Assembly (NCBI GenBank): GCA_017743275.1
Contig: JAGHZG010000017.1
Coordinates: 1-11,809, forward strand
Direction of reading: 5' to 3'
Source of the DNA: Chloroflexota bacterium
GTDB lineage: Bacteria; Chloroflexota; Anaerolineae; B4-G1; DUEL01
Length of the DNA stretch: 11,809 nt
Made by a program: the position numbers and the translations under genes. Position 1 is the first letter of the stretch, and the number at the start of each line of letters is the position of its first letter. This document shows positions 2,466-11,644 of this stretch, one piece after another. The notes under the pieces are model-generated. The model saw only the letters and a list, made by a program, of their open reading frames with translations, searched no databases and had not been told where the DNA came from.

Positions 2466-4541
2466 TTGAAGGAGTACACGACCCCAAATATTCGCAACCT
2501 GGTTCTGCTGGGCCACGGCAGCAGTGGCAAGACGTCCCTGGCCGAGGCAATGCTCTTCGCCAGTGGCGCCATCAACCGTATGGGGCGGGTGGAGGACGGC
2601 ACCACTGTCTCCGATTTTGACGAGGAGGAAATCCGACGGCGCATCTCCCTGAGCATGGCCCTGATCCCGGTGGAGTGGGAGGGATGCAAACTGAACGTCC
2701 TGGACACCCCCGGCTACCTGGACTTCATCGGAGAGGTCATCAGCGGCATCCGCGTCGCCGACCTGGCGCTGGTGCTGGTGGACCCCGTCGGCGGGGTGGA
2801 AGTCGGCACCGAACTGGTCTGGAACTACGCCGACCAATACAACTTGCCCCGCGTGGTGGTGGTCAACAAGATGAACCGGGAGAACGCCGACTTTGCCCGC
2901 ACCCTGGAGGCGCTGCGGGACGCGTTCCGGCGCAATTTCGTCCCCCTCCAACTTCCCATTGGCGCGCAGGCCAGTTTCGCGGGAGTGGTGGACCTGGTCC
3001 GGATGCGGGCGCTGATGGGCCCCGAGGCGAAGGTCGCCGACATCCCCGCCGATATGAAGGCCCAGGCCGAGGAGGCGCGGGTCCAGTTGGTGGAGGCCGC
3101 CGCCGAGGGCGATGACGAACTCATTATGAAGTACCTGGAGGGCGAGGAACTGACGGAGGAGGAAATCCGACGTGGCCTGCGGGCGGCCATCCTGAAGGGA
3201 AGTGTAGTACCGGTCCTTGTGACGGCCGCGACGGAGAACATCGGCACGCGGGCTCTGCTGGACGTGCTGGTCGCCTATGCCCCGTCCCCCGCCGACCGGG
3301 GTCCGGAGAAGGCCGAGGGGCCCACCGGTGAGGAAGAAGAGATTGAGCCCAGCGACACGGCCCCTCTGGCCGCGCTGGTCTTCAAGACCGCCGCCGACCC
3401 CTATGTGGGCAAACTGACCTATTTTCGGATTTACGGCGGAATGCTGGAATCGGACACACGGGTCTGGAACAGCCGGGCCAACACCGAAGAGCGGCTGGGC
3501 ACCCTCTACGTGATGCGGGGCAAGGAGCAGATCGCCGTCCCGCGCCTGCACGCGGGCGATATCGGCGCGGTCGCCAAACTCTCCGAGACCGTCACCGGCG
3601 ACACCCTCTGCGACCGGGGCCACGCGGTGAAAATCCCCGGCCCCGTCTTCCCGCATCCGCTCTTCGCCGTCGCCGTCCGTCCCAAGAGCAAGGCCGACCA
3701 GGCCAAGATGGCCCCCACCCTCACCCGCATCTGCGAGGAGGACCCGACCCTGCGCTGGCGGCAGGAGCCGGGTACCCGGGAGACCATTCTGGAAGGCATG
3801 GGCGAGGCGCACGTGGAGATTGCCGTCCGGCGGATGGAGAACCGCTTCGGCGTCGGCGTGGAGACCTCTACCCCCAAAGTCCCCTACCGGGAGACCATTA
3901 CCCGCGTCCACTCCGACTACTACCGGCACAAGAAGCAGACGGGCGGCGCGGGGCAGTTCGCCGAGGTCCACATGCGCCTGGAGCCGCTGCCGCGCGGGAC
4001 CGGCTTTGAGTACGGATGGGAGGTCTTCGGCGGCGCCATCTCCTCTTCCTTCCAGCCGTCCATTGAAAAGGGCATCAAGCAGGTGCTGGAGAGCGGCGTC
4101 ATCGCCGGGTACCCCGTCGTAGACGTGAAAGCGGTCGTCTACGATGGCAAGGAGCACCCGGTGGACTCCAAAGACATCGCCTTCCAGATTGCCGGACGGG
4201 AGGCGTTCAAGAAGGTGATGCTGGGTGCCGGGCCCGTGCTCCTGGAGCCCATCTACAAGGCGGTCATCACCGTTCCGGAGGAGTTCACGGGCGACGTGAT
4301 GGGCCACCTGAACACCAAGCGGGCCCGCGTATTGGGGATGGAGCAGCAGGGAGGAAAGAGCATCATCACTGCCCTGGTCCCGCTGGCGGAGATGCAGCGG
4401 TACGCCACCGAACTGCGCAGCATGACCCAGGGGCGGGGGCTGTTCTGGATGGAGTTTGACCACTACGAGGAGGTCCCGCCCCACCTGGCGCAGCCCATCA
4501 TAGAGGCCGCCAAACGGGAGCGGGAGCAGGAGCGGGAGTAG
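2466..4541 (+). CDS. EF-G-like translational GTPase (EF-G-2 type)
   Basis: A 691-aa protein of normal EF-G length. The GTPase domain has P-loop GHGSSGKT (16-23), a switch I region with IRRRISLSM instead of the classical RGIT, DTPG (80-83), and NKMN (134-137) where NKxD is expected. Domain II follows around 300-390. Domain IV starts near residue 488 with HKKQTGGAGQFAEV, and domain V follows near 595 (LLEPIYKAVITVPEE). This pattern suits the second bacterial EF-G subfamily rather than housekeeping FusA, so a role in ribosomal translocation or rescue is likely but not certain. The TTG start is set by AGGAGG at 2455-2460, five bases upstream. It has its own strong promoter and ends at a hairpin facing the convergent DegV gene. 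Confidence 0.9.
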   Translation: MKEYTTPNIRNLVLLGHGSSGKTSLAEAMLFASGAINRMGRVEDGTTVSDFDEEEIRRRISLSMALIPVEWEGCKLNVLDTPGYLDFIGEVISGIRVADLALVLVDPVGGVEVGTELVWNYADQYNLPRVVVVNKMNRENADFARTLEALRDAFRRNFVPLQLPIGAQASFAGVVDLVRMRALMGPEAKVADIPADMKAQAEEARVQLVEAAAEGDDELIMKYLEGEELTEEEIRRGLRAAILKGSVVPVLVTAATENIGTRALLDVLVAYAPSPADRGPEKAEGPTGEEEEIEPSDTAPLAALVFKTAADPYVGKLTYFRIYGGMLESDTRVWNSRANTEERLGTLYVMRGKEQIAVPRLHAGDIGAVAKLSETVTGDTLCDRGHAVKIPGPVFPHPLFAVAVRPKSKADQAKMAPTLTRICEEDPTLRWRQEPGTRETILEGMGEAHVEIAVRRMENRFGVGVETSTPKVPYRETITRVHSDYYRHKKQTGGAGQFAEVHMRLEPLPRGTGFEYGWEVFGGAISSSFQPSIEKGIKQVLESGVIAGYPVVDVKAVVYDGKEHPVDSKDIAFQIAGREAFKKVMLGAGPVLLEPIYKAVITVPEEFTGDVMGHLNTKRARVLGMEQQGGKSIITALVPLAEMQRYATELRSMTQGRGLFWMEFDHYEEVPPHLAQPIIEAAKREREQERE

Positions 4542-4544
4542 AGG

Positions 4545-4593
4545 AATGGATGGATTTTGCGGCGGCCGGAGGCCGCTGCAAAATCCATCCATT
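4545..4593. terminator. Convergent hairpin between the EF-G-like and DegV genes
   Basis: Arms 4545-4560 and 4578-4593 are perfect 16-base inverted repeats (AATGGATGGATTTTGC and its complement). An inner perfect stem GCGGCC-gga-GGCCGC (4562-4576) is joined by one G-T pair, giving about 23 pairs closed by a 3-base loop. It starts 4 bases after the EF-G stop and overlaps the DegV stop codon (4594-4592). No T-tract follows on either strand, so a bidirectional terminator or mRNA-end stabiliser is inferred. Confidence 0.7.
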
Positions 4594-5464
4594 ATCGCTT
4601 TGCCTGCCCGGTCGGGAAGAAACAGACCCCCACGGTTCCCGGGCCGGAGTGGACGGCCAGGGCCGGGGAGAGATTGGTGACGATGACCTCAATGCACTCA
4701 AAGTGTTCCAGCACCCGCTCCTGCAGTTGCCGCATCCGGTCCAGCGCCGCCACGTGGGTGAAGGCTACCTTGATGCGTGCCCCCTTCCCCACTTTTTCCT
4801 CCATCAGTTCCACCATTCGGGCGTAGGCCCGGGAGAGGCTGCGAGCCGTCCCCAAGGCAACGATCACGCCGTCCTCCATCCCGATGAGCGGCTTGATGTT
4901 CAGGAGCGTCCCCACCAGGTGCTGCGCCCGCCCGATGCGACCGCCCATGTGCAGGTAGCGGAGGGTGTCGGCGGTCTGAATCATCATCGCCCGGCGGGCC
5001 ACCTCGCGCGCCCGCTCCACGACGTCCCGCAGACTCTGCCCGGCCAGGGCCGCGCGCGCGGCCTCTATGGCGGCCCAGCCGTGCGCCATCGCCACCTGCA
5101 GGGTGTCCACGACCTCCACCTGTAACTGGGGCAACCGTTCTTTGATGATTTCCACCGCCGCCCGGCAGGACTGAAACGCCCCGCTCCCCTTAGAGGTCAT
5201 CGTCAGCGCGACGATTTCGCGCGTCCGCTCCGCCAGCCGTTGCAGCCCGCTCAGATAGTCCCCCGGGCTGGGGTTGGACGTCGTCGGCAGGGTGTCTGCC
5301 CGCTCCAGGTACCGGGCCAGCGTGTCGGTGTCTATATCCACCTCGTCCCGCAACGTCTCCAGGCCGCGATGGACATAGTAGGGCACCAGTTCTATGCCCA
5401 GTTCCTCCGCCAGCGGCCGGGGAATGCTGGCGGTGGTGTCGGTCAGAATGCCCACAGTGGCCAT
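4592..5464 (-). CDS. DegV family protein (FakB-like fatty-acid-binding)
   Basis: This 290-aa protein matches the DegV/FakB fold, whose known members bind a fatty acid and present it to the kinase FakA for phosphorylation. Visible signatures are the N-terminal GILTDTTASIP (5-15), the TTSNPSPGDYL lipid/phosphate-binding motif (61-71), and GGRIGRAQHLVGTLLNIKPLI in the C-terminal half. No signal peptide or membrane segment is present, so it is cytoplasmic. The start is ATG 5464, because GGAGG lies five bases upstream; an in-frame ATG 21 bases further upstream would place that Shine-Dalgarno sequence inside the gene. No fakA-like gene is in the window. A separate repeat-filled gap divides it from the radical SAM gene upstream. 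The family call is firm; the ligand is unknown. Confidence 0.92.
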   Translation of the reverse strand: MATVGILTDTTASIPRPLAEELGIELVPYYVHRGLETLRDEVDIDTDTLARYLERADTLPTTSNPSPGDYLSGLQRLAERTREIVALTMTSKGSGAFQSCRAAVEIIKERLPQLQVEVVDTLQVAMAHGWAAIEAARAALAGQSLRDVVERAREVARRAMMIQTADTLRYLHMGGRIGRAQHLVGTLLNIKPLIGMEDGVIVALGTARSLSRAYARMVELMEEKVGKGARIKVAFTHVAALDRMRQLQERVLEHFECIEVIVTNLSPALAVHSGPGTVGVCFFPTGQAKR

Positions 5465-5485
5465 CTCTTCCTCCAAAAAGGTCAT

Positions 5486-5661: not shown

Positions 5662-6849
5662 TTACGGGCACCGCACGATGTCCTGCGCCCAGAGGCAATC
5701 GGCGCAGGACGGGCACCACCCCCAGCAGCCATCGTTGGATTCGGCGATGTCGCAGGTATCCCGGAGTGGACAGTCCACGCACGAGGGGAAGTGGAAGCCC
5801 CGCACCTCGGCCCGGAAGCGGACGTATTCGCCCGAGGTCCAGATGTCCGCCAGACTCTGCTGCTGGACGTTGCCCAGGACGTAGCGGGTCACGTTCTTGC
5901 GGCGGCCGAAGATGTAGTAGGGGTACGTGTGGGAGAGGGCGTAGCAGGGGCTGACCCCGCCGTCCCACCCCACCACCAGCGCCTTCCCGGCGACAAAGCG
6001 GCAGCGCCGCTCGGCCCCCCAGTTCATCCGGGGCAGTTCCACAATCCCCCAGAGGAGCCAGCCGCCCACGTTCAGCGCCCAGCCGGGGGGAAGGGGAAAC
6101 GACGGCGTCTCGTCCCGCCCGTACAGAGCATCGGCGGCCATCTCCGGGGTGTGGGGCAGGACGTGGGTGACCAGGACCCGGTTGGCCTCCAGCCGACGGG
6201 CCAGGTCCGAAAGCGCGGGCAGGTCGTCCACGTTCCGCCTCAGGGCGACGAACTCCAACTGAATCCGCGGGAGCGTCTGGCCCCGTTCCCGCTTGATGCG
6301 GTTCAGGACCTCCACGTTCTCCACCACAGTCCGCAGGTCGGCGCCCCGCCGGACGTCGGCGAAGACCTCCGGACGGGCCCCGTCCACGGAGACGCTCAGG
6401 ACATCCGCCCCGATGTCCACCAGCGCCCGCGCCCGTTCCTCATCCAGCAGCGTGCCGTTGGTGCTGACGGTCACCCGGACCCCCAGGCCCTTCACCGCCG
6501 CCAGGTAGTCCAGAAAGCGGGGGTGGGCGAAGGGCTCCCCGTACCCGCCGAAGAGGACCTCCCGCAGGTCGGGCAGTTCCCGCATCCCCTCTAACACCCG
6601 CCCGAAGGTCGCGTCGGTCATATCCGCCAGCGGCTCCCCCCAGACGTTGCGGACGCAGGTACGACAGGCCAGGTTGCAGCGGGTGGTCACTTCCAGATAG
6701 ACTTTGCGGACGTCGGGGCGGAGCGGGAAGAGAACGATGCCCGTCTCCGTCCCCTCCACCAGCAGTTCCCCTCCGGCCTCCAACCCCCAGCGGCGCCGCA
6801 GCCCCTCCGGCAACACCACGCGCCCTTCCGCATCCACCTTCACCTTCAT
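5662..6849 (-). CDS. Radical SAM/SPASM protein with N-terminal AbrB-like domain; tungsten-cofactor oxidoreductase maturase-like
   Basis: A 395-aa protein. Residues 1-43 form a SpoVT-AbrB-like swapped-hairpin domain (MKVKVDAEGRVVLPEGLRRR). The radical SAM domain then begins, with the SAM-cluster triad Cys58/62/65 in TTRCNLACRTC, GGYGEP, and STNGTLL. The C-terminal quarter holds about ten cysteines in SPASM-like auxiliary-cluster motifs, ending CWGWCPSCADCLWAQDIVRCP-like (final Cys394). That C-terminus and the AbrB-like N-terminus recall the radical SAM maturases encoded beside tungsten aldehyde:ferredoxin oxidoreductases (the Pyrococcus cofactor-modifying protein and the TIGR04317 group). This is recalled resemblance, not a search. 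ATG 6849 has GAGGGGAG just upstream. It is the last gene of the leftward series. No AOR-type oxidoreductase gene lies in the window, so its partner must be elsewhere or differ. The radical SAM call is firm; the maturase call is moderate. Confidence 0.85.
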   Translation of the reverse strand: MKVKVDAEGRVVLPEGLRRRWGLEAGGELLVEGTETGIVLFPLRPDVRKVYLEVTTRCNLACRTCVRNVWGEPLADMTDATFGRVLEGMRELPDLREVLFGGYGEPFAHPRFLDYLAAVKGLGVRVTVSTNGTLLDEERARALVDIGADVLSVSVDGARPEVFADVRRGADLRTVVENVEVLNRIKRERGQTLPRIQLEFVALRRNVDDLPALSDLARRLEANRVLVTHVLPHTPEMAADALYGRDETPSFPLPPGWALNVGGWLLWGIVELPRMNWGAERRCRFVAGKALVVGWDGGVSPCYALSHTYPYYIFGRRKNVTRYVLGNVQQQSLADIWTSGEYVRFRAEVRGFHFPSCVDCPLRDTCDIAESNDGCWGWCPSCADCLWAQDIVRCP

Positions 6850-6860
6850 CTCCCCTCACT

Positions 6861-6944
6861 TTTTACGTTTCACGTTTTACGTTTCACGTTTTACGTTTCA
6901 CGTTTTACGTTTCACGCTTCACGTTTCACGTTTCACGTTTCACT
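6861..6944. repeat. Heptamer tandem array TTTYACG, about 12 copies
   Basis: Eleven full 7-base units plus one partial occupy 6861-6944. The first eight alternate regularly TTTTACG / TTTCACG; then come CTTCACG and TTTCACG copies. The array fills the gap between the radical SAM gene and the 61-aa gene upstream. It encodes the last residues (VKRET) and the stop codon of the latter. It has the same period as the 672-727 array but a different sequence. Confidence 0.92.
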
Positions 6945-7111
6945 CCCCACGGCTCCTCAAACTCCAGCACGAACCTCCCATACCCGTCCACGTAGAAAAT
7001 CATCTCCTTCGCTCCCGGCTTCAACATTTCCAGCAGTTTGCGGGAGACGTAGACGGTCAGGTCATCGGCGGAGAAGCGGACGAAGTCGTCGGGGTTTTCG
7101 GGTTCGCCCAT
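6926..7111 (-). CDS. Small protein of unknown family (61 aa)
   Basis: I do not recognise this 61-aa protein. It reads as a compact alpha/beta domain: an acidic N-terminus, a strand (DDLTVYVS), a helix (RKLLEMLKPG) and two strands (KEMIFYVDGYGRFVLEF). It has no cysteine, signal peptide or membrane segment. Clear amphipathic patterning and an ATG supported by in-frame stops just upstream make it likely real, though no strong Shine-Dalgarno is seen. The last five residues (VKRET) and the stop come from the heptamer array, so the ancestral C-terminus probably ended near EEPWG. It lies between the activase and the radical SAM gene on the same strand. An accessory role to the radical SAM protein (chaperone, carrier or substrate) is conceivable but unsupported. 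Confidence 0.6.
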   Translation of the reverse strand: MGEPENPDDFVRFSADDLTVYVSRKLLEMLKPGAKEMIFYVDGYGRFVLEFEEPWGVKRET

Positions 7112-7141
7112 CCGACCGGATGAGCCCTCAAAGAAGATTCA

Positions 7142-7237
7142 TCAATCCAGGCAGACGAGGCGGCGGGCGATGTTCAGCACGCCGCCCCGCTGACGGATGA
7201 AGTCCTGCAGCCAGGCTGAGGGAATCCGGACATTCAT
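7142..7237 (-). CDS. Possible 31-aa ORF coupled to the activase stop codon
   Basis: This 31-codon frame starts at ATG 7237, overlapping the activase stop by one base (TAATG), and ends at TGA 7144-7142. The peptide begins MNVRIPSAWLQDFIRQRGG and ends RRLVCLD, with one cysteine and a basic helix-like middle. GGGAGG lies about 10 bases upstream within the activase gene, which would suit coupled re-initiation. I do not recognise it. It may be a genuine small protein, a remnant of a longer gene, or chance. Length and lack of homology keep confidence low. Confidence 0.35.
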   Translation of the reverse strand: MNVRIPSAWLQDFIRQRGGVLNIARRLVCLD

Positions 7238-8190
7238 TAGAGCACCTCCCAGCGGTCACAGCGCCCGCCCCAGCGGGCCATCACCTGCCCGTCCATCCGA
7301 ATCTGCGCGATCTCGCACAGGTTGGGACAGGCGCGGCACTCAAACGAGGTCGTCTGCACATCGGCGTGGACGACGTCAAAGCCCCGGAACTGGCTGGGCC
7401 GGCCGTCGCTCCACTCCCGCGCCAGCAGCGCCGCGCCCAGGGCCCCCATCACCTCGTGGTGCGGCGGGACGAGAATCTCCGTCCCCAGGGCCTCCCGGAA
7501 GGCCCGCACCACCCCGGCATTGGCCGCCACCCCGCCCTGGAAGACCACCGGTGGCTCTATCGTCTTCCCCAGGGCCAGGTTGTTCAGATAGTTCCGCACC
7601 AGCGCCTGACAGAGGCCGTAGAGGATGTCGTCCACCGGGAAGCCCATCTGCTGCTTGTGGATCATATCCGACTCGGCGAAGACGGTGCAGCGGCCGGCGA
7701 TGCGCACCGGGTTGGACGACCGCAGGGCCCGCCGCCCCAGTTCCTCAACGGGGATGCCCAGCCGGTACGCCTGCTGCTCCAGAAACGACCCCGTCCCGGC
7801 CGCGCAGACGGAGTTCATCGCGAAATCCACCACGACGCCGTCCCGGAGCAGAATCAGTTTGGAGTCCTGCCCGCCGATGTCTATGACCGTGCGGACATCG
7901 GGGACGAAGTGCAGGGCCGCCACCGCGTGGGCCGTAATCTCGTTTTTGACCACGTCCGCGCCGACAATGGCCCCCGCCAGTTGGCGGCCACTCCCGGTGG
8001 TGCCCACCCCCAGGACGCGGACCCGCGAGGGGAGCAGAGTCGCCATCCGGCTCAGCCCCTCCCGGACCGCCTGGACAGGCTGTCCGGCGGTGCGGAGATA
8101 GTCCGAGGCGACCAGGTTCCCCTGGGGGTCCACGGCTGCGAACTTGGTCGTCACCGAACCCACGTCAACGCCCAGGAACACCTCATCCAT
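7237..8190 (-). CDS. BcrA/BadF/HgdC-like ATPase: acyl-CoA dehydratase-type activase with C-terminal Cys tail
   Basis: A 317-aa ASKHA-fold ATPase. Known relatives are homodimers with one [4Fe-4S] cluster between the subunits, and use ATP to inject a low-potential electron into a partner reductase or dehydratase. Visible motifs are phosphate-1 DVGSVTTK (9-16), phosphate-2 DIGGQDSK (104-111), bridging-cluster cysteines Cys129 (VCAAGTG) and Cys168 (GRCTVF), and the adenosine motif FQGGVAANAG. After the usual end of the fold comes an extra segment, FECRACPNLCEI...GGRCDRW, with four cysteines, perhaps a second cluster site. It resembles the tail seen in long fused activase/DUF2229 proteins. ATG 8190 has GGAGG seven bases upstream and overlaps the preceding gene's TGA by 8 bases, so translation is probably coupled. 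Confidence 0.93.
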   Translation of the reverse strand: MDEVFLGVDVGSVTTKFAAVDPQGNLVASDYLRTAGQPVQAVREGLSRMATLLPSRVRVLGVGTTGSGRQLAGAIVGADVVKNEITAHAVAALHFVPDVRTVIDIGGQDSKLILLRDGVVVDFAMNSVCAAGTGSFLEQQAYRLGIPVEELGRRALRSSNPVRIAGRCTVFAESDMIHKQQMGFPVDDILYGLCQALVRNYLNNLALGKTIEPPVVFQGGVAANAGVVRAFREALGTEILVPPHHEVMGALGAALLAREWSDGRPSQFRGFDVVHADVQTTSFECRACPNLCEIAQIRMDGQVMARWGGRCDRWEVL

Positions 8191-9112
8191 CGGCCTTCCT
8201 CCAGCGCAGCATGTCCACGAACGCTTCCAATCGGGTGACCAGACCGGCCTCACCGCTGTGCTCGTCCAGCACCAGGGCCATCATCGGGACGCCCGCCTCC
8301 TGGCACAACTGCCGGACCTCGTCCACCAGGACCGCGTCCGGCCCGCAGCCGAAAGCGACCACGGCGATGACGCCCCGCACGCCCCGCTCCAGCGCCAGGC
8401 GGGCCGCGCCGACCAGTTCGTGCTCAAAGGCCCAGTAGTCCGCTCCCGGCTGGGGGCCCAGCCGCTCCGGGGTCAGCGGGTTCACCCCCAGGCGGGCCAG
8501 CCGGACCAGCAGTTGGTGGTTGATGAACGGGTCGTACAGGTTGTAGGGGTGCCCGACGACGGCCACCGGGATGCCGTAGGGGGGCCAGGGCGGAGCCTTC
8601 CCCGGACGGTCAAAGTCGGCGGGGGTCAGGCGGCCCTCCTGCATCGCCTGACGGGCGGCGCGGTAGGCGTCCCAGGCCGCCGTCACCGCGTCGCGCAGGG
8701 TCAGGGGATTGCGGCTGAAGGGTGCCCCAGCCTCCAGCACCAGCGACAGCAACGCGCGGGCCTCTTGTGCCAGGTCTATGTCCGGCGCAATGAGTGGTGG
8801 CAGGTCCGGCATCGTGGCCCGCAAGAGGTCGGGCAGGCCGATCTGCCGGGCGCAGTTGGTGGAGCCGGGGGCCAGGCGCTGGATAGAGGGCACCAGCAAC
8901 TGGTCCACCTGCCCGACCAGCGCCCGGACGTGGCCGTAGAACAACTTCATCGGGAGACAGGTCTCCGCCACAGCGTAGCGCAGTCCCGCCTCCAGCGTGG
9001 CCCGGTTCGTCGGCGGAGAGACGACCAGTTCCACGCCCAGGCGGTCAAAGAAGGCCGCCCAGGCCGGGTGGAACCGGTAGAAGGAGAGGGCTCTGGGGAC
9101 CCCGATGCGCAT
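8183..9112 (-). CDS. DUF2229/HgdB-like 2-hydroxyacyl-CoA dehydratase-type subunit (309 aa)
   Basis: This protein belongs to the HgdA/HgdB/BcrB superfamily, the electron-accepting partner of the downstream activase. It opens with the DUF2229 signature MRIGVPRALSFYRFHPAW and VVSPPTN (30-36). It carries three candidate cluster cysteines, Cys52 (AETCLPMK), Cys87 (STNCARQ) and Cys256 (AFGCGPD). It ends with the family motif LDEHSGEAGLVTRLEAFVDML. At 309 aa it is shorter than classical HgdA/HgdB subunits (about 380-480). ATG 9112 has GGAGG six bases upstream and lies three bases after the stop of its paralogue. Relatives dehydrate 2-hydroxyacyl-CoAs, reduce benzoyl-CoA, or hold double-cubane [8Fe-9S] clusters. 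The substrate here cannot be told from sequence. Confidence 0.9.
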   Translation of the reverse strand: MRIGVPRALSFYRFHPAWAAFFDRLGVELVVSPPTNRATLEAGLRYAVAETCLPMKLFYGHVRALVGQVDQLLVPSIQRLAPGSTNCARQIGLPDLLRATMPDLPPLIAPDIDLAQEARALLSLVLEAGAPFSRNPLTLRDAVTAAWDAYRAARQAMQEGRLTPADFDRPGKAPPWPPYGIPVAVVGHPYNLYDPFINHQLLVRLARLGVNPLTPERLGPQPGADYWAFEHELVGAARLALERGVRGVIAVVAFGCGPDAVLVDEVRQLCQEAGVPMMALVLDEHSGEAGLVTRLEAFVDMLRWRKADG

Positions 9113-9115
9113 CGC

Positions 9116-10201
9116 TCACCTCCGCCGTCGGCGGGCCGACCAGAGCATGTCCACGAAGGCCTCCAGACGGGTCATCACGCCCGCCGCGCCGGTCTGCTCG
9201 TCAAAGGAGAGGCTGAGGACGGGCACGCCCCGTTCCCGCTGCAGGGCGACCAGCGCGCTCTGGGCCACGGTCTCCGGCGTGCAATTGAAGGGGGCCACGT
9301 GGATCAGGCCGTCCACCTCCCCCTCGGCCATCAGCGCGGCCTCCGCGACGGTGGAACGGGCGAACCCGCCCACATCTCGCTTCAGGTAGCGGCTCCCGGC
9401 CCGCCGGGCCCGTCCGCCCCGGTCCATCCGCAGGAAGTCGGGCAGGGGCAGGCTGACGCGGCCCGTGTAGCGGAACCAGCGGCGGACCTCCACCCCCATC
9501 CGCCCCAACTGGACCTCCAGGTTGTGGTTGAGGAAGGGGGTCAGAATGGTGTAAACGTCGCCCACCAGGCCGATGCGCAGGACCGGACGGTCTTCGTCCA
9601 GGCCCACCGCGTTCAGCAGGCCCAGGATGTCGTCCCGCTGCTCTTCCAGTTCCTCGCGGGTGCGCAGCGCGGCGATGCGCTCCCAGGCTGCGGCATAGGC
9701 CCGGTCCGCCGCGCCCCGTTCCCGCTCCCGCGGCCGCGCCACCAGCACGCCTGTCTCCAGCGCGTCGGTCAGGTCCAGCAGCGCCAGCAGGAAACGGATC
9801 GGCTCCACCAGTTCGGTGGCCGGACGCCCGTCGGCAAAGGCGCGGGTCAGGCGGAAGATGTCCCGGTGGACGTGGTAGAGGTCCAGCGTGTGGACGCGCA
9901 CCGCGAACCCCCACTCCTGGAGACGGCGGGCCTGCTGGGCGACGGAGTAGCCCAGGCGGCAGGTGCCGGGCCCGCCCAGCATGACGATGTCGGTGGCGCC
10001 CCGCTCCGCCGCCTCCACGTAGTTGCCGAAGAGGAGTTTGCAGGGGATGCAGATCATCTCCGGCGAGCCCTGCACGCCGATGTCCAGGGTACGGCGGGAC
10101 GTGGGCGGCGGGGTGACCGTCTCCACCCCCAGCGCGTGGAGGTAAGTTTCGGCCACTCGGCTTAGGAAACCCAGAGGCGGGAACGCCACGCGTCGGGTCA
10201 T
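9116..10201 (-). CDS. Second DUF2229/HgdB-like subunit (361 aa)
   Basis: This is a paralogue of the next gene, with the same plan. The N-terminus VAFPPLGFLSRVAETYLHAL is followed by PPPTSRRTLD (31-40). Four candidate ligand cysteines are Cys51 and Cys54 (MICIPCK), Cys81 (GPGTCRLGY) and one near 305 (APFNCTPE). The terminal motif is SFDEQTGAAGVMTRLEAFVDMLW. Residues about 150-200 form an Arg/Glu-rich helical insert absent from the shorter paralogue. The C-terminus is a run of arginines. ATG 10201 has GGGAGGAG with seven-base spacing, 14 bases after the Fe-S gene. A heterodimer of the two HgdB-like subunits, fed by the activase, is the simplest model and parallels HgdAB or BcrBC. The exact reaction is unknown. 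Confidence 0.88.
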   Translation of the reverse strand: MTRRVAFPPLGFLSRVAETYLHALGVETVTPPPTSRRTLDIGVQGSPEMICIPCKLLFGNYVEAAERGATDIVMLGGPGTCRLGYSVAQQARRLQEWGFAVRVHTLDLYHVHRDIFRLTRAFADGRPATELVEPIRFLLALLDLTDALETGVLVARPRERERGAADRAYAAAWERIAALRTREELEEQRDDILGLLNAVGLDEDRPVLRIGLVGDVYTILTPFLNHNLEVQLGRMGVEVRRWFRYTGRVSLPLPDFLRMDRGGRARRAGSRYLKRDVGGFARSTVAEAALMAEGEVDGLIHVAPFNCTPETVAQSALVALQRERGVPVLSLSFDEQTGAAGVMTRLEAFVDMLWSARRRRR

Positions 10202-10215
10202 CCCGTTGCTCCTCC

Positions 10216-10767
10216 CTACCGTTTGGGGCCAATGGCGGGCAGGTCCACGTCTATCAGCGCGGCCAGTTCCTCCCGCTGCGGCGCGTACTGCGGGTCCTCA
10301 AAGAGCGGCGTGCAGGCCTCCAGCCGGACCTGCCCGGCGGCCAACTTGTTGGCGAAGGCGAAGCAGGAAGCCTCGCCGCAGGCCTTGCAGTTGGTGCGCG
10401 GCAGGAGTTTGTAGACTTCCAGGCCGGTGGGACGGCGGCGGGTCTCGTAGTTGGGCTCAATCTGGTCCCGCCGCTCCCAGGTACGGTTGACCAGGGCGAT
10501 GATTCCCTCTATTTCCTTGATCGCCGCCTCCCGGTCCTCCACGTTGCTGACGCCAATCTGGTTGGGCTGGAAGACGACGTAGTGGCCGGCCTTGCGCCAA
10601 CTCACCGAGGGGACCGCCGGTTCGTAGACCGCGCCGCGCAGGGTGGCGTTGAGGTACGGGAAGACCTCCCGGATGTCGTTAGGCAGGTGGGCGTTCGCGC
10701 TGAAGCGCTCCGCCCCCGGCTCGCAGGGCGGCGTGAAGACCTCCAGGTCATACTTTTCTATCAGCAT
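10216..10767 (-). CDS. Fe-S protein with CFeSP/RnfB-type [4Fe-4S] domain (183 aa)
   Basis: First gene of the operon. Residues 1-115 are a domain I cannot name (VFTPPCEPGAERFSAN, DIREVFPYLNATLRGAVY, SWRKAGHYVVF). Residues 119-155 are the Fe-S domain also found in the AcsC corrinoid protein and in RnfB/RsxB: LLPRTNCKACGEASCFAFA, with ligands Cys127, Cys130, Cys135 and Cys152. An extra Cys15 lies in a conserved-looking PPC motif. Soluble, with no membrane segment. The start is ATG 10767, with AGGAGG five bases upstream; an ATG five codons earlier would place the Shine-Dalgarno inside the gene. Its position suggests a dedicated electron donor or scaffold for the HgdB-like/activase machine downstream. 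The Fe-S domain is firm; the role is inferred. Confidence 0.88.
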   Translation of the reverse strand: MLIEKYDLEVFTPPCEPGAERFSANAHLPNDIREVFPYLNATLRGAVYEPAVPSVSWRKAGHYVVFQPNQIGVSNVEDREAAIKEIEGIIALVNRTWERRDQIEPNYETRRRPTGLEVYKLLPRTNCKACGEASCFAFANKLAAGQVRLEACTPLFEDPQYAPQREELAALIDVDLPAIGPKR

Positions 10768-10805: not shown

Positions 10806-10829
10806 AGCACAGGGGACAGGAATATGGAA
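10801..10829 (-). promoter_or_regulatory. Possible divergent promoter of the Fe-S / HgdB-like operon
   Basis: On the minus strand, TATTAT (10806-10801) overlaps the opposing -10 almost completely. TTCCAT (10829-10824), a poor -35, lies 17 bases upstream and covers the start codon of the divergent gene. Transcription would start near 10794, leaving about 26 bases before ATG 10767. The -10 is good; the -35 is weak. Confidence 0.4.
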
Positions 10830-11135
10830 GCGGTAGAACGGGAACTGCTGGAAATTCGGACCCGGCTGGACCGGCTGGAGCAGCGAGTCCGGCAACTGGC
10901 GGGCGAGGAGGTGGAAATCTCTCCGCCGACGCCGGGCATCCCGCCGGACCCCCAGCGTCTCCTGGCCTGGCTGCGGGCCCAGGGGCTGATCCGGGAGCCC
11001 ACCCCTGAGGAGCGGCGGCTGGCCGAGGAATGGGACGCGTTACCCGAGGAGGAGAAGGAAGCCCACATCCGTCTGATGCATAGTTTGGTCCTTGACCCAC
11101 CCCTCAGCCAGATTATCATAGATAACCGCCGGTGA
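10824..11135 (+). CDS. Small helical protein, probable antitoxin partner of the PIN protein (103 aa)
   Basis: The family is not recognised. Residues 1-29 (MEAVERELLEIRTRLDRLEQ...) form a short coiled-coil-like helix. A Pro-rich linker follows (ISPPTPGIPPDPQ, about 33-45), then a charged helical half containing EEWDALPEEEKEAHIRLM. No AbrB, ribbon-helix-helix or Phd signature is visible, so DNA binding cannot be claimed. The protein is acidic, as many antitoxins are. ATG 10824 is preceded by ACAGGAAT and a good promoter. Its TGA overlaps a GTG candidate start of the PIN gene and lies two bases before that gene's ATG. The antitoxin call rests on gene order and coupling alone. Confidence 0.65.
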   Translation: MEAVERELLEIRTRLDRLEQRVRQLAGEEVEISPPTPGIPPDPQRLLAWLRAQGLIREPTPEERRLAEEWDALPEEEKEAHIRLMHSLVLDPPLSQIIIDNRR

Positions 11136-11137
11136 GC

Positions 11138-11644
11138 ATGGCTCTCTACTATTTTGACGCCAGTGCGCTGGTCAAGTACTATGTAACCGAGCCGGGAAGC
11201 ACCTGGGTCCGCTATCTCGTGGAAGATTGGGATACCCGGACCGCCCGATGGGCTCACACGATTTTTGCTGCAGAAATCACGCGCGTAGAAGTCGCTGCAG
11301 GTCTGGCCGTGATAGAGCGCACGGGGCGGATTCGGAGAGCCCAGCGGGACCGGGAATATCGGCGTTTTGCCAGCCAGTTTGTCTACCGATATACGGTCAT
11401 TCCCCTGACCACAGCAGACCTGGAATACGCGGCAGATTTGACCCAGCACCACCCCCTGAAGGCCTACGACGCCGTCCAGTTGGCCGTCGCCCTGCGGTAC
11501 GCCAGCATCCTGGCGGCCCTCGGGCTTCCCCTGACCTTCGTCAGCGGGGACGCGACGCTGCTGGCCGCGGCGCAGGCCGAAAGCCTCCCCACCGAGAACC
11601 CCTTTGACCACGTCGCCCCCGAGGATACGCCGGGCCCGCCCTGA
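11138..11644 (+). CDS. PIN-domain protein, probable VapC-type RNase toxin
   Basis: A 168-aa PIN-domain protein; relatives are Mg2+-dependent RNases, commonly toxins of VapBC modules that cut tRNA or rRNA. Acidic active-site residues are visible: Asp7 in YYFDASALVK, Glu51 (or Glu46) in AAEITRVEVAAGL, the Asp of AYDAVQLAVAL, and the Asp of FVSGDATLLAAA. The last 20 residues are a Pro/Glu-rich tail. ATG 11138 is chosen because the PIN fold usually starts directly with such a strand. An in-frame GTG at 11132 would overlap the upstream TGA by 3 bases and is a real alternative. It forms an operon with the small gene upstream, and repeat hairpins follow within 30 bases of its stop. The PIN fold is firm; the toxin role is inferred. 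Confidence 0.88.
   Translation: MALYYFDASALVKYYVTEPGSTWVRYLVEDWDTRTARWAHTIFAAEITRVEVAAGLAVIERTGRIRRAQRDREYRRFASQFVYRYTVIPLTTADLEYAADLTQHHPLKAYDAVQLAVALRYASILAALGLPLTFVSGDATLLAAAQAESLPTENPFDHVAPEDTPGPP

What the first reader, a model, noticed from the sequence alone, without database searches (positions are those of the whole stretch)
7237..10767. Split, four-gene ATP-driven Fe-S electron-transfer machine with unknown substrate
An Fe-S protein, two different HgdB/DUF2229-like subunits and one activase lie in order on one strand, with gaps of 14 and 3 bases and an 8-base overlap, so equal co-translation is likely. In many bacteria the activase and DUF2229 domains are fused in one very long protein; here they are separate. 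Established knowledge: such pairs run 2-hydroxyacyl-CoA dehydratases, class I benzoyl-CoA reductases and double-cubane [8Fe-9S] proteins. Seen: cluster-type cysteines are kept in all four proteins. No CoA transferase, acyl-CoA dehydrogenase or aromatic pathway gene is adjacent, so the substrate may be non-canonical.
Basis: partly seen in the sequence, partly recalled or inferred. Interest (0 to 1): 0.75.

Follow-up and report, generated by a model that had tools for sequence, protein, structure and literature searches.

The report
Twin-selenocysteine protein beside ATP-driven reductase
The four-gene run is real, but it is part of a longer operon that also encodes a small, overlooked protein predicted to carry two selenocysteines side by side, and relatives of that protein often sit among arsenic-resistance-type genes.

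Summary
The four genes lie exactly where described. Two HgdB-like subunits and an activase belong to the ATP-driven dehydratase/benzoyl-CoA reductase/double-cubane superfamily. The "four-gene machine" is not a stable unit: the Fe-S gene occurs in 79 of 396 class genomes, the close HgdB subunit in 7. Its ATG overlaps the activase stop by one base and its frame holds TGA-TGA (7139-7144), conserved in 28 of 28 loci inspected, with coding signatures on both sides and a SECIS-like stem downstream with a GGUC loop and compensatory change. The genome has SelB and tRNA-Sec. All 116 database homologues found begin after the doublet. So it is a predicted Sec-Sec selenoprotein. Relatives often lie near ArsR, ACR3, an SO_0444-like permease, the Fe-S gene and a radical SAM gene. 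Genomes with close HgdB carry it in 6 of 7 cases, others in 19 of 389. Best reading: ATP-driven reductant for a metalloid, probably arsenic, system; substrate unproven.

The parts
10216..10767 (-). Fe-S protein: about 115-aa N-terminal part without a Pfam match plus a C-terminal PF04060 [4Fe-4S] domain closest to the N-terminus of the CFeSP large subunit
   Evidence: PF04060 46.8 bits; CFeSP gamma chains E 4.7e-10 over residues 116-160 of P0001, which has two extra leading residues; in 79 of 396 class genomes and 18 of the 25 with the selenoprotein
9116..10201 (-). HgdB-like subunit A, four invariant Cys (C51, C54, C81, C307)
   Evidence: model pLDDT 89.6; all 14 Foldseek matches at E<=0.001 are HadBC/DCCP/BzdNO/MbdON
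8183..9112 (-). HgdB-like subunit B, three invariant Cys (C52, C87, C256), so a possible open iron site (inference)
   Evidence: DUF2229 152.1 bits, HGD-D 31.1 bits; alignment of 11
7237..8190 (-). BadF/HgdC-type activase (ASKHA ATPase)
   Evidence: PF01869 181.1 bits; TIGR00241 197.1 bits over cut-off 125.4; five solved activase sequences match within residues 5-259
7240..7344 (-). four-Cys C-terminal tail of the activase (C-x2-C-x3-C...C), beyond the part matched by solved activases
   Evidence: 57 of 57 activase hits that reach it, from 57 of 59 loci with an activase hit; two loci end before it, and a second, distant activase in L041 is matched only to residue 259; solved chains of 243-276 aa
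6926..7237 (-). Predicted Sec-Sec selenoprotein, 103 aa (ATG overlaps the activase stop by 1 base)
7139..7144 (-). tandem TGA-TGA codons = Sec32-Sec33
   Evidence: conserved in 28 of 28 loci inspected, the window included
7106..7125 (-). SECIS-like stem (8 bp as modelled) with GGUC loop; the loop starts 21 nt after the second UGA
   Evidence: alignment of 24 loci, closing pair C-G 14, A-U 9, other 1; the covariance model built from them gives 27 matches at selenoprotein genes in 48 sources plus one weak match judged chance
5662..6849 (-). Radical SAM/SPASM protein with an N-terminal MazE/AbrB-like domain, TIGR04317
   Evidence: 406.3 bits over cut-off 380; PF04055, PF13186, PF04014; relatives within 150 bp of the selenoprotein gene in 8 of 25 loci

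Best explanation
This is a six-gene operon: Fe-S protein, HgdB-A, HgdB-B, activase, Sec-Sec protein, radical SAM/SPASM protein. Shown by sequence: the domains, the order, and two in-frame UGA codons with a SECIS-like stem in a genome that has SelB and tRNA-Sec. Inferred: the activase hydrolyses ATP to push single electrons into the A/B heterodimer (A with a four-Cys cluster as relay, B with a three-Cys cluster that leaves one iron open). The Fe-S protein feeds electrons to it or passes them on. The two adjacent selenols of the small protein bind or reduce a soft metalloid, most likely an arsenic species, in a detoxification or organometalloid pathway. The radical SAM protein matures one of the partners. 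A-B-activase is an optional booster added to a wider Anaerolineae system.
For: Sec-Sec: TGA-TGA in 28 of 28 loci inspected; 26 of 26 class matches with at least 2 TGA inside, in 25 of 396 genomes and nine family labels; third-position excess before and after the doublet; stem with compensatory changes, covariation score reached by 0 of 500 shuffles; own SelB 348.8 bits over cut-off 242.25; tRNA-Sec, anticodon UCA (a second over-cut-off match is tRNA-Ser); SelB in 21 of 25 positive against 7 of the 20 listed nearest negative genomes; 116 homologues at E<=0.001 (772 candidates from 5.8 billion proteins) all start after the doublet, none has Cys-Cys there. Linkage: close A co-occurs with the selenoprotein in 6 of 7 genomes against 19 of 389 (Fisher 2.3e-7; 5 of 6 and 3.1e-6 without the duplicate species), on one contig in two gene orders (window/L121, L124). 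Arsenic: ArsR in 17, SO_0444-like permease in 13, ACR3 in 8 of 25 loci; 7 of 19 ACR3 matches (two are pieces of one gene) lie within about 6.5 kb of a selenoprotein gene, 0.10 expected within 9 kb; L125 of the same genus has ArsR upstream. Reductase fold.
Against: The window shows no ars gene, and G000 has no ACR3 match at E<=1e-30 (genome 76.5% complete). A-B-activase is beside the selenoprotein in only 2 of 25 loci, one of them the window's own species, and one A-positive genome (G631) lacks the selenoprotein. The arsenic context is not tied to the selenoprotein: 11 of 16 Fe-S loci without it also show ArsR, 5 of 16 ACR3. Minimum-energy folds that include the UGAs do not show the stem in full in any of three sequences (z -0.63, -0.01, 0.30); it appears in window and L004 folds from every downstream start tried, in L094 from one of four. 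The numbers of pairs changed on both sides and of pair types are not above shuffles (326 and 450 of 500 reach them). Four of 25 selenoprotein-positive genomes show no SelB at E<=1e-60. L120 lacks the stem. No Cys homologue supports Sec by the classical test. Co-occurrence tests ignore phylogeny.
Confidence: 0.5

Rival explanations
1. A-B-activase is a stand-alone reductase or dehydratase for a CoA or ACP thioester, as perhaps elsewhere in bacteria, and it neighbours the selenoprotein by chance or shared regulation only.
For: Of 68 loci with an A relative only L002 and L004 show the Fe-S protein or the selenoprotein. Beyond the triad no ORF cluster is shared by more than 11 of the 68 loci, and in five of them (L036, L038, L044, L047, L068) an acyl-carrier-protein-like ORF (named by eye) lies in the fetched stretch. 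L003, L005, L006 and L007 show no Fe-S or selenoprotein on their short contigs.
Against: Genome-level co-occurrence 6 of 7 against 19 of 389; 1-base overlap with the selenoprotein gene in the window; second arrangement with another gene order in L124.
Confidence: 0.3
2. The cluster serves tungsten (aldehyde oxidoreductase) maturation: the radical SAM protein is a tungsten-cofactor maturase and the rest supplies low-potential electrons or metal.
For: Radical SAM over the TIGR04317 cut-off (406.3 against 380; L128 387.2); six AOR matches in the same genome; an AOR-like ORF (identified by eye) in L130 and L131.
Against: No AOR among the window proteins scanned. Radical SAM relatives also sit in ars-type clusters, e.g. 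L159 (278 bits, below cut-off). The family name is an annotation, not a tested function.
Confidence: 0.1
3. TGA-TGA is a genuine double stop: the 5' ORF is a short protein and the 61-aa ORF a separate gene.
For: The database's gene predictions treat it so (116 of 116 homologues). TGATGA in otherwise open frames is common in this kind of DNA: 26 cases in 20 control loci.
Against: 28 of 28 conservation within one continuous family (down to 34% identity to the window protein), a stem at fixed distance with compensatory change, own SelB and tRNA-Sec, and the SelB correlation.
Confidence: 0.04
4. The small protein is an Fe-S or metal carrier on an A-type (IscA/SufA) fold with the Sec pair at the metal site, delivering clusters or selenium rather than binding arsenic.
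Against: Model pLDDT 68.3, under 50 around the pair; best Foldseek E 0.044, none at E<=0.001; profile comparisons not significant (P 0.55 and 0.13); C-terminal Cys-Gly-Cys ligands absent.
Confidence: 0.25

Closest known systems
2-hydroxyacyl-CoA dehydratase HadBC / class I benzoyl-CoA reductase BzdNO, MbdON / double-cubane protein with activase
   Same: Activase family, two HgdB-type subunits, fold of A
   Different: Far below the equivalog cut-offs (double_cubane 15.9 and 18.8 against 350; BCR A 111.6 against 578); activase has an extra four-Cys tail; no CoA-pathway gene seen beside it; placed in a selenoprotein operon
NF041239 CC/Se motif family (seleno)protein (Moorella type)
   Same: 19 of 21 members scanned match at E<=0.01; small protein with a Sec motif
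   Different: Window protein scores 25.6 against cut-off 40; the review table gives that family CxxU and one Sec (PMC13188914), here two adjacent Sec
SAO (Sec-assisted organometallic) and Tso selenoprotein operons
   Same: Multi-gene selenoprotein operons; several of their proteins are linked to metal or metalloid resistance (passages in PMC13188914). ArsR-type, SaoE-like and thioredoxin-like genes also occur near relatives here
   Different: SaoE model 68.9 and 35.8 against 325, TsoR 53.1 against 115, TsoB 35.6 against 805 for neighbours of relatives
Algal PDI_e selenoprotein (GUGUU)
   Same: Two consecutive Sec residues; called the first of its kind in PMC7539508 (passages)
   Different: Eukaryotic PDI with three neighbouring Sec; this is a bacterial protein of another kind
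TIGR04317 tungsten cofactor oxidoreductase radical SAM maturase
   Same: 406.3 bits over cut-off
   Different: Next to a selenoprotein gene, with no AOR found in the window
CFeSP large subunit N-terminal [4Fe-4S] domain
   Same: 45-residue alignment, E 4.7e-10
   Different: Rest of the protein does not match CFeSP (PF04060 is its only Pfam match)

Membership tests
HgdB/activase ATP-driven reductase superfamily | BadF/HgdC-type ATPase | tested here: met
   PF01869 181.1 bits; TIGR00241 197.1 over 125.4
HgdB/activase ATP-driven reductase superfamily | two HgdB-type subunits with cluster cysteines and the fold | tested here: met
   (fold tested for A only)
HgdB/activase ATP-driven reductase superfamily | ATP-dependent electron transfer to a substrate | not testable with these tools
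   needs enzymology
Double-cubane protein (NF040772) | curated cut-off 350 bits | tested here: not met
   15.9 and 18.8 bits
Benzoyl-CoA reductase (TIGR02259/02261/03192) | curated equivalog cut-offs | tested here: not met
   111.6/578, 83.1/312.85, 88.7/380.2
Bacterial selenoprotein | conserved in-frame UGA within a conserved ORF | tested here: met
   28 of 28 loci; codon-position signal both sides
Bacterial selenoprotein | SECIS-like stem-loop just downstream | tested here: met
   24 aligned loci; absent in L120, L119 cut off
Bacterial selenoprotein | SelB and tRNA-Sec in the genome | tested here: met
   other positive genomes SelB 21 of 25
Bacterial selenoprotein | Cys homologues at the Sec position | tested here: inconclusive
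   none among 116 homologues; the distant NF041239 family may hold them
Bacterial selenoprotein | selenium in the protein | not testable with these tools
   needs 75Se or mass spectrometry
NF041239 CC/Se family | curated cut-off 40 bits | tested here: not met
   25.6 bits for the window protein; bit scores of the other members are not shown
TIGR04317 radical SAM maturase | curated cut-off 380 bits | tested here: met
   406.3
TIGR04317 radical SAM maturase | tungsten oxidoreductase (AOR) gene nearby (recalled) | tested here: not met
   none among the window proteins scanned; six AOR matches on other contigs
SAO/Tso selenoprotein operons | Sao/Tso families over cut-off in the neighbourhood | tested here: not met
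   for nine genes of L094 and L004; none among the families listed for six window proteins (where 25 of 55 were listed for the radical SAM protein)
A-type Fe-S carriers (IscA/SufA/ErpA) | fold | tested here: inconclusive
A-type Fe-S carriers (IscA/SufA/ErpA) | C-terminal Cys-Gly-Cys ligands | tested here: not met
   alignment

The most novel reading that the evidence does not exclude
A bacterial selenoprotein family with an obligatory Sec-Sec pair, decoded from two consecutive UGAs by one SECIS, acts as a diselenol metalloid carrier on an IscA-like scaffold. In some lineages it is recharged by an ATP-driven HgdB/activase reductase through a CFeSP-like Fe-S protein: an undescribed arsenic (or other metalloid) reduction pathway.
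Probability: 0.25. Interest if true: 0.92.

Novelty: new variant of a known kind. Interest (0 to 1): 0.76.

Why it matters
If confirmed, this is a bacterial protein family that needs two adjacent selenocysteines and that the searched protein database holds only as ORFs cut off at the doublet (116 of 116 homologues found). It would test whether one SECIS can drive two consecutive Sec insertions without loss. It would also give the HgdB/activase reductases a possible role outside acyl-CoA chemistry and add a selenium-based branch to arsenic handling.

Tried and rejected
Acyl-CoA dehydratase or benzoyl-CoA reductase as a family assignment: rejected because the equivalog cut-offs are far from met and no pathway gene was seen in the window. 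Corrinoid reductive activation, suggested by the CFeSP-like Fe-S domain: I recognised no corrinoid or methyltransferase gene in the neighbourhoods looked at, but did not search for one, so it is dropped and not excluded. Rfam scan of 6800-7400 gave only one weak match (13.8 bits). Family NF041239 searched in the own genome gave nothing at E<=0.001; the search rang nowhere, so it shows no absence. Phylum searches found the selenoprotein in 2 of 400 and 2 of 331 genomes, both times G000 and G011; the class search found 25 of 396. Fe-S-positive, selenoprotein-negative loci (16 fetched, from 16 of 61 such genomes) held no hidden selenoprotein (the 19.3-bit match in L163 does not read as one). Foldseek/VIA listings for the small protein name no family beyond A-type carriers with confidence.

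Papers: Haft and Gwadz 2023 and Haft and Tolstoy 2025 are not held and are known here only from citations and a review, so they may report part of this. Searches for tandem, adjacent or consecutive Sec wording: one search was swamped by an unrelated phrase (20 of 385 papers listed, none on selenium); one search listed 5 papers and one search listed 7; of these I opened only the algal one (PMC7539508), and an Ebola paper on tandem UGA codons was seen as a listing only. PMC13188914: passages and section 7 part 1 read, the rest not. PMC10418091 and PMC7539508: passages only.

Resemblance of the GGUC loop to the E. coli fdhF SECIS, and the open iron site of three-Cys HgdB subunits, are recalled, not tested.
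Full report
What is there. The four minus-strand genes are at the stated coordinates with the stated spacing. They encode a PF04060 Fe-S protein, two DUF2229/HGD-D proteins and a BadF-type activase. The genome is a 2.26-Mb, 442-contig, 76.5% complete assembly. A public contig with 99% identity at A is labelled Thermoflexus sp..

The operon goes on. The activase stop overlaps an ATG by one base. The reading frame from 7237 continues through two consecutive TGA codons to 6926, giving 103 residues with Sec32-Sec33. The 61-aa ORF is only its C-terminal part. The full read-through raises the match to NF041239 from 16.0 to 25.6 bits, still under the cut-off of 40. Then comes a radical SAM/SPASM protein over the TIGR04317 cut-off.

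Why it is Sec-Sec. A search that reads through stops found relatives in 25 of 396 genomes of the class; all 26 matches have at least two TGA inside. In the 28 loci I inspected (window included) the doublet is conserved in 28; L095/L096 are one species and L099 is the same locus as L004. For the stem alignment I dropped four of the 28: L095 and L099 as near-duplicates, L119 cut off by a contig end, and L120, in which the stem region is missing. In the remaining 24 the doublet is followed at constant distance by a stem-loop region, loop GGUC in most rows. Of the eight modelled pairs, 92.7% of cells pair. The outermost pair holds in 12 of 24; the closing pair is C-G in 14, A-U in 9 and broken in 1. 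Covariation score, cells paired and cells changed on both sides exceed all 500 shuffles; the number of pairs changed on both sides and of pair types do not. By inspection the C-G to A-U swap links a synonymous Ser codon change to an Arg/Leu change. Substitutions favour third codon positions before as well as after the doublet. A covariance model built from these rows returns 27 matches at selenoprotein genes in 48 sources and one weak match that is not such a gene. Minimum-energy folds that include the UGAs do not show the stem in full; folds started downstream do for window and L004, and from one of four starts for L094. The genome has SelB and a UCA-anticodon tRNA-Sec. SelB at E<=1e-60 is found in 21 of 25 other selenoprotein-positive genomes and 7 of 20 negative ones, the latter being the nearest relatives listed and not a random draw. 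Of 116 database homologues, 116 start after the doublet and none carries Cys-Cys there.

What it travels with. In 25 fetched loci, several on short contigs, tblastn finds ArsR in 17, the Fe-S protein in 14, an SO_0444-like permease in 13, the radical SAM protein in 10, ACR3 in 8, and A-B-activase in 2. Within 150 bp on the same strand the neighbour is the Fe-S gene in 10, radical SAM in 8, ACR3 in 3. Of 19 ACR3 matches in 26 genomes (two are pieces of one gene), 7 lie within about 6.5 kb of a selenoprotein gene, one of these beside the stemless copy L120, against 0.10 expected by random placement within 9 kb. A same-genus locus (L125) has ArsR upstream and another (L122) has Fe-S and selenoprotein side by side without A-B-activase. 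The Fe-S protein is found in 18 of 25 selenoprotein genomes and 61 of 371 others. Sixteen Fe-S loci without the selenoprotein show ArsR in 11, ACR3 in 5, the permease in 3 and radical SAM in 2. One of them, on a single-contig genome (L159), has ArsR, permease, thioredoxin, radical SAM, Fe-S, a second ArsR-like ORF (by eye), an arsenate-reductase-like protein (103 bits, cut-off 215) and ACR3. The arsenic context is therefore well supported for the wider cluster; for the window it is by relationship only.

The HgdB part. A has four and B three invariant Cys. The A model (pLDDT 89.6) matches only HadBC, DCCP, BzdNO and MbdON at E<=0.001 (14 of 14). The activase carries a C-terminal four-Cys tail in 57 of 57 hits that reach it, beyond the part matched by solved activases. 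Close A relatives (E<=1e-80) occur in 7 of 396 class genomes, and 6 of these have the selenoprotein against 19 of 389; the two searches report the same totals, so I take the draw to be the same. Two of the six are the same species; without one of them it is 5 of 6, P 3.1e-6. In three of the six (G663, G723, G408) the A and selenoprotein matches are on different contigs. Across 68 loci with an A relative, mostly from other phyla, the Fe-S protein and selenoprotein are found only in L002 and L004, and no further ORF cluster is shared by more than 11 loci.

The small protein's fold. The model is weak (pLDDT 68.3). Its best structural neighbours are A-type Fe-S carriers, and an alignment puts Sec33 on their first cluster Cys. 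Sequence profiles do not support homology. I treat this as a lead.

Verdict. The finding is real, but its most unusual part lay just outside its coordinates. The HgdB/activase module is a known kind in a new setting. The Sec-Sec protein appears to be a new subfamily related to the CC/Se motif family. In my literature searches (few of the listed papers opened) I saw tandem Sec described only in an algal PDI, and two key papers are not held.

Noticed in passing
window 6850-6935: Short direct repeats (gtgaaac/gtaaaac units) between the selenoprotein C-terminus and the radical SAM start (seen).
   Followed up: no
window 10824-11644 (+): A 103-aa ORF followed by a PIN-domain protein (34.6 bits): looks like a VapBC-type pair; related PIN genes lie near the Fe-S gene in L122 and L154.
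   Followed up: no
window 2466-4541 (+), 4592-5485 (-), and the minus-strand ORF ending at 639: EF-G-like GTPase and DegV protein; the ORF ending at 639 contains a MiaB-like sequence (by eye).
   Followed up: no
L120 (G592:C358): Second selenoprotein copy in one genome keeps TGA-TGA but lacks the stem region; may be a decaying copy.
   Followed up: partly
L036, L038, L044, L047, L068: HgdB-activase triads in Syntrophaceae and Spirochaetes MAGs lie in the same stretch as acyl-carrier-protein-, acyltransferase- and glycosyltransferase-like ORFs (named by eye); the substrate there may be ACP-bound.
   Followed up: no
L151-L166: The Fe-S gene without selenoprotein is often near ArsR (11 of 16) and DGC-domain relatives (6 of 16): a wider Anaerolineae metalloid cluster.
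   Followed up: partly
G000 contigs C207, C429, C29, C273, C37, C176: Six aldehyde ferredoxin oxidoreductase matches in the same genome.
   Followed up: no
activase C-terminus, window 7240-7344 and 57 loci: Conserved C-x2-C-x3-C...C tail of the activase subfamily that accompanies split DUF2229 proteins.
   Followed up: partly
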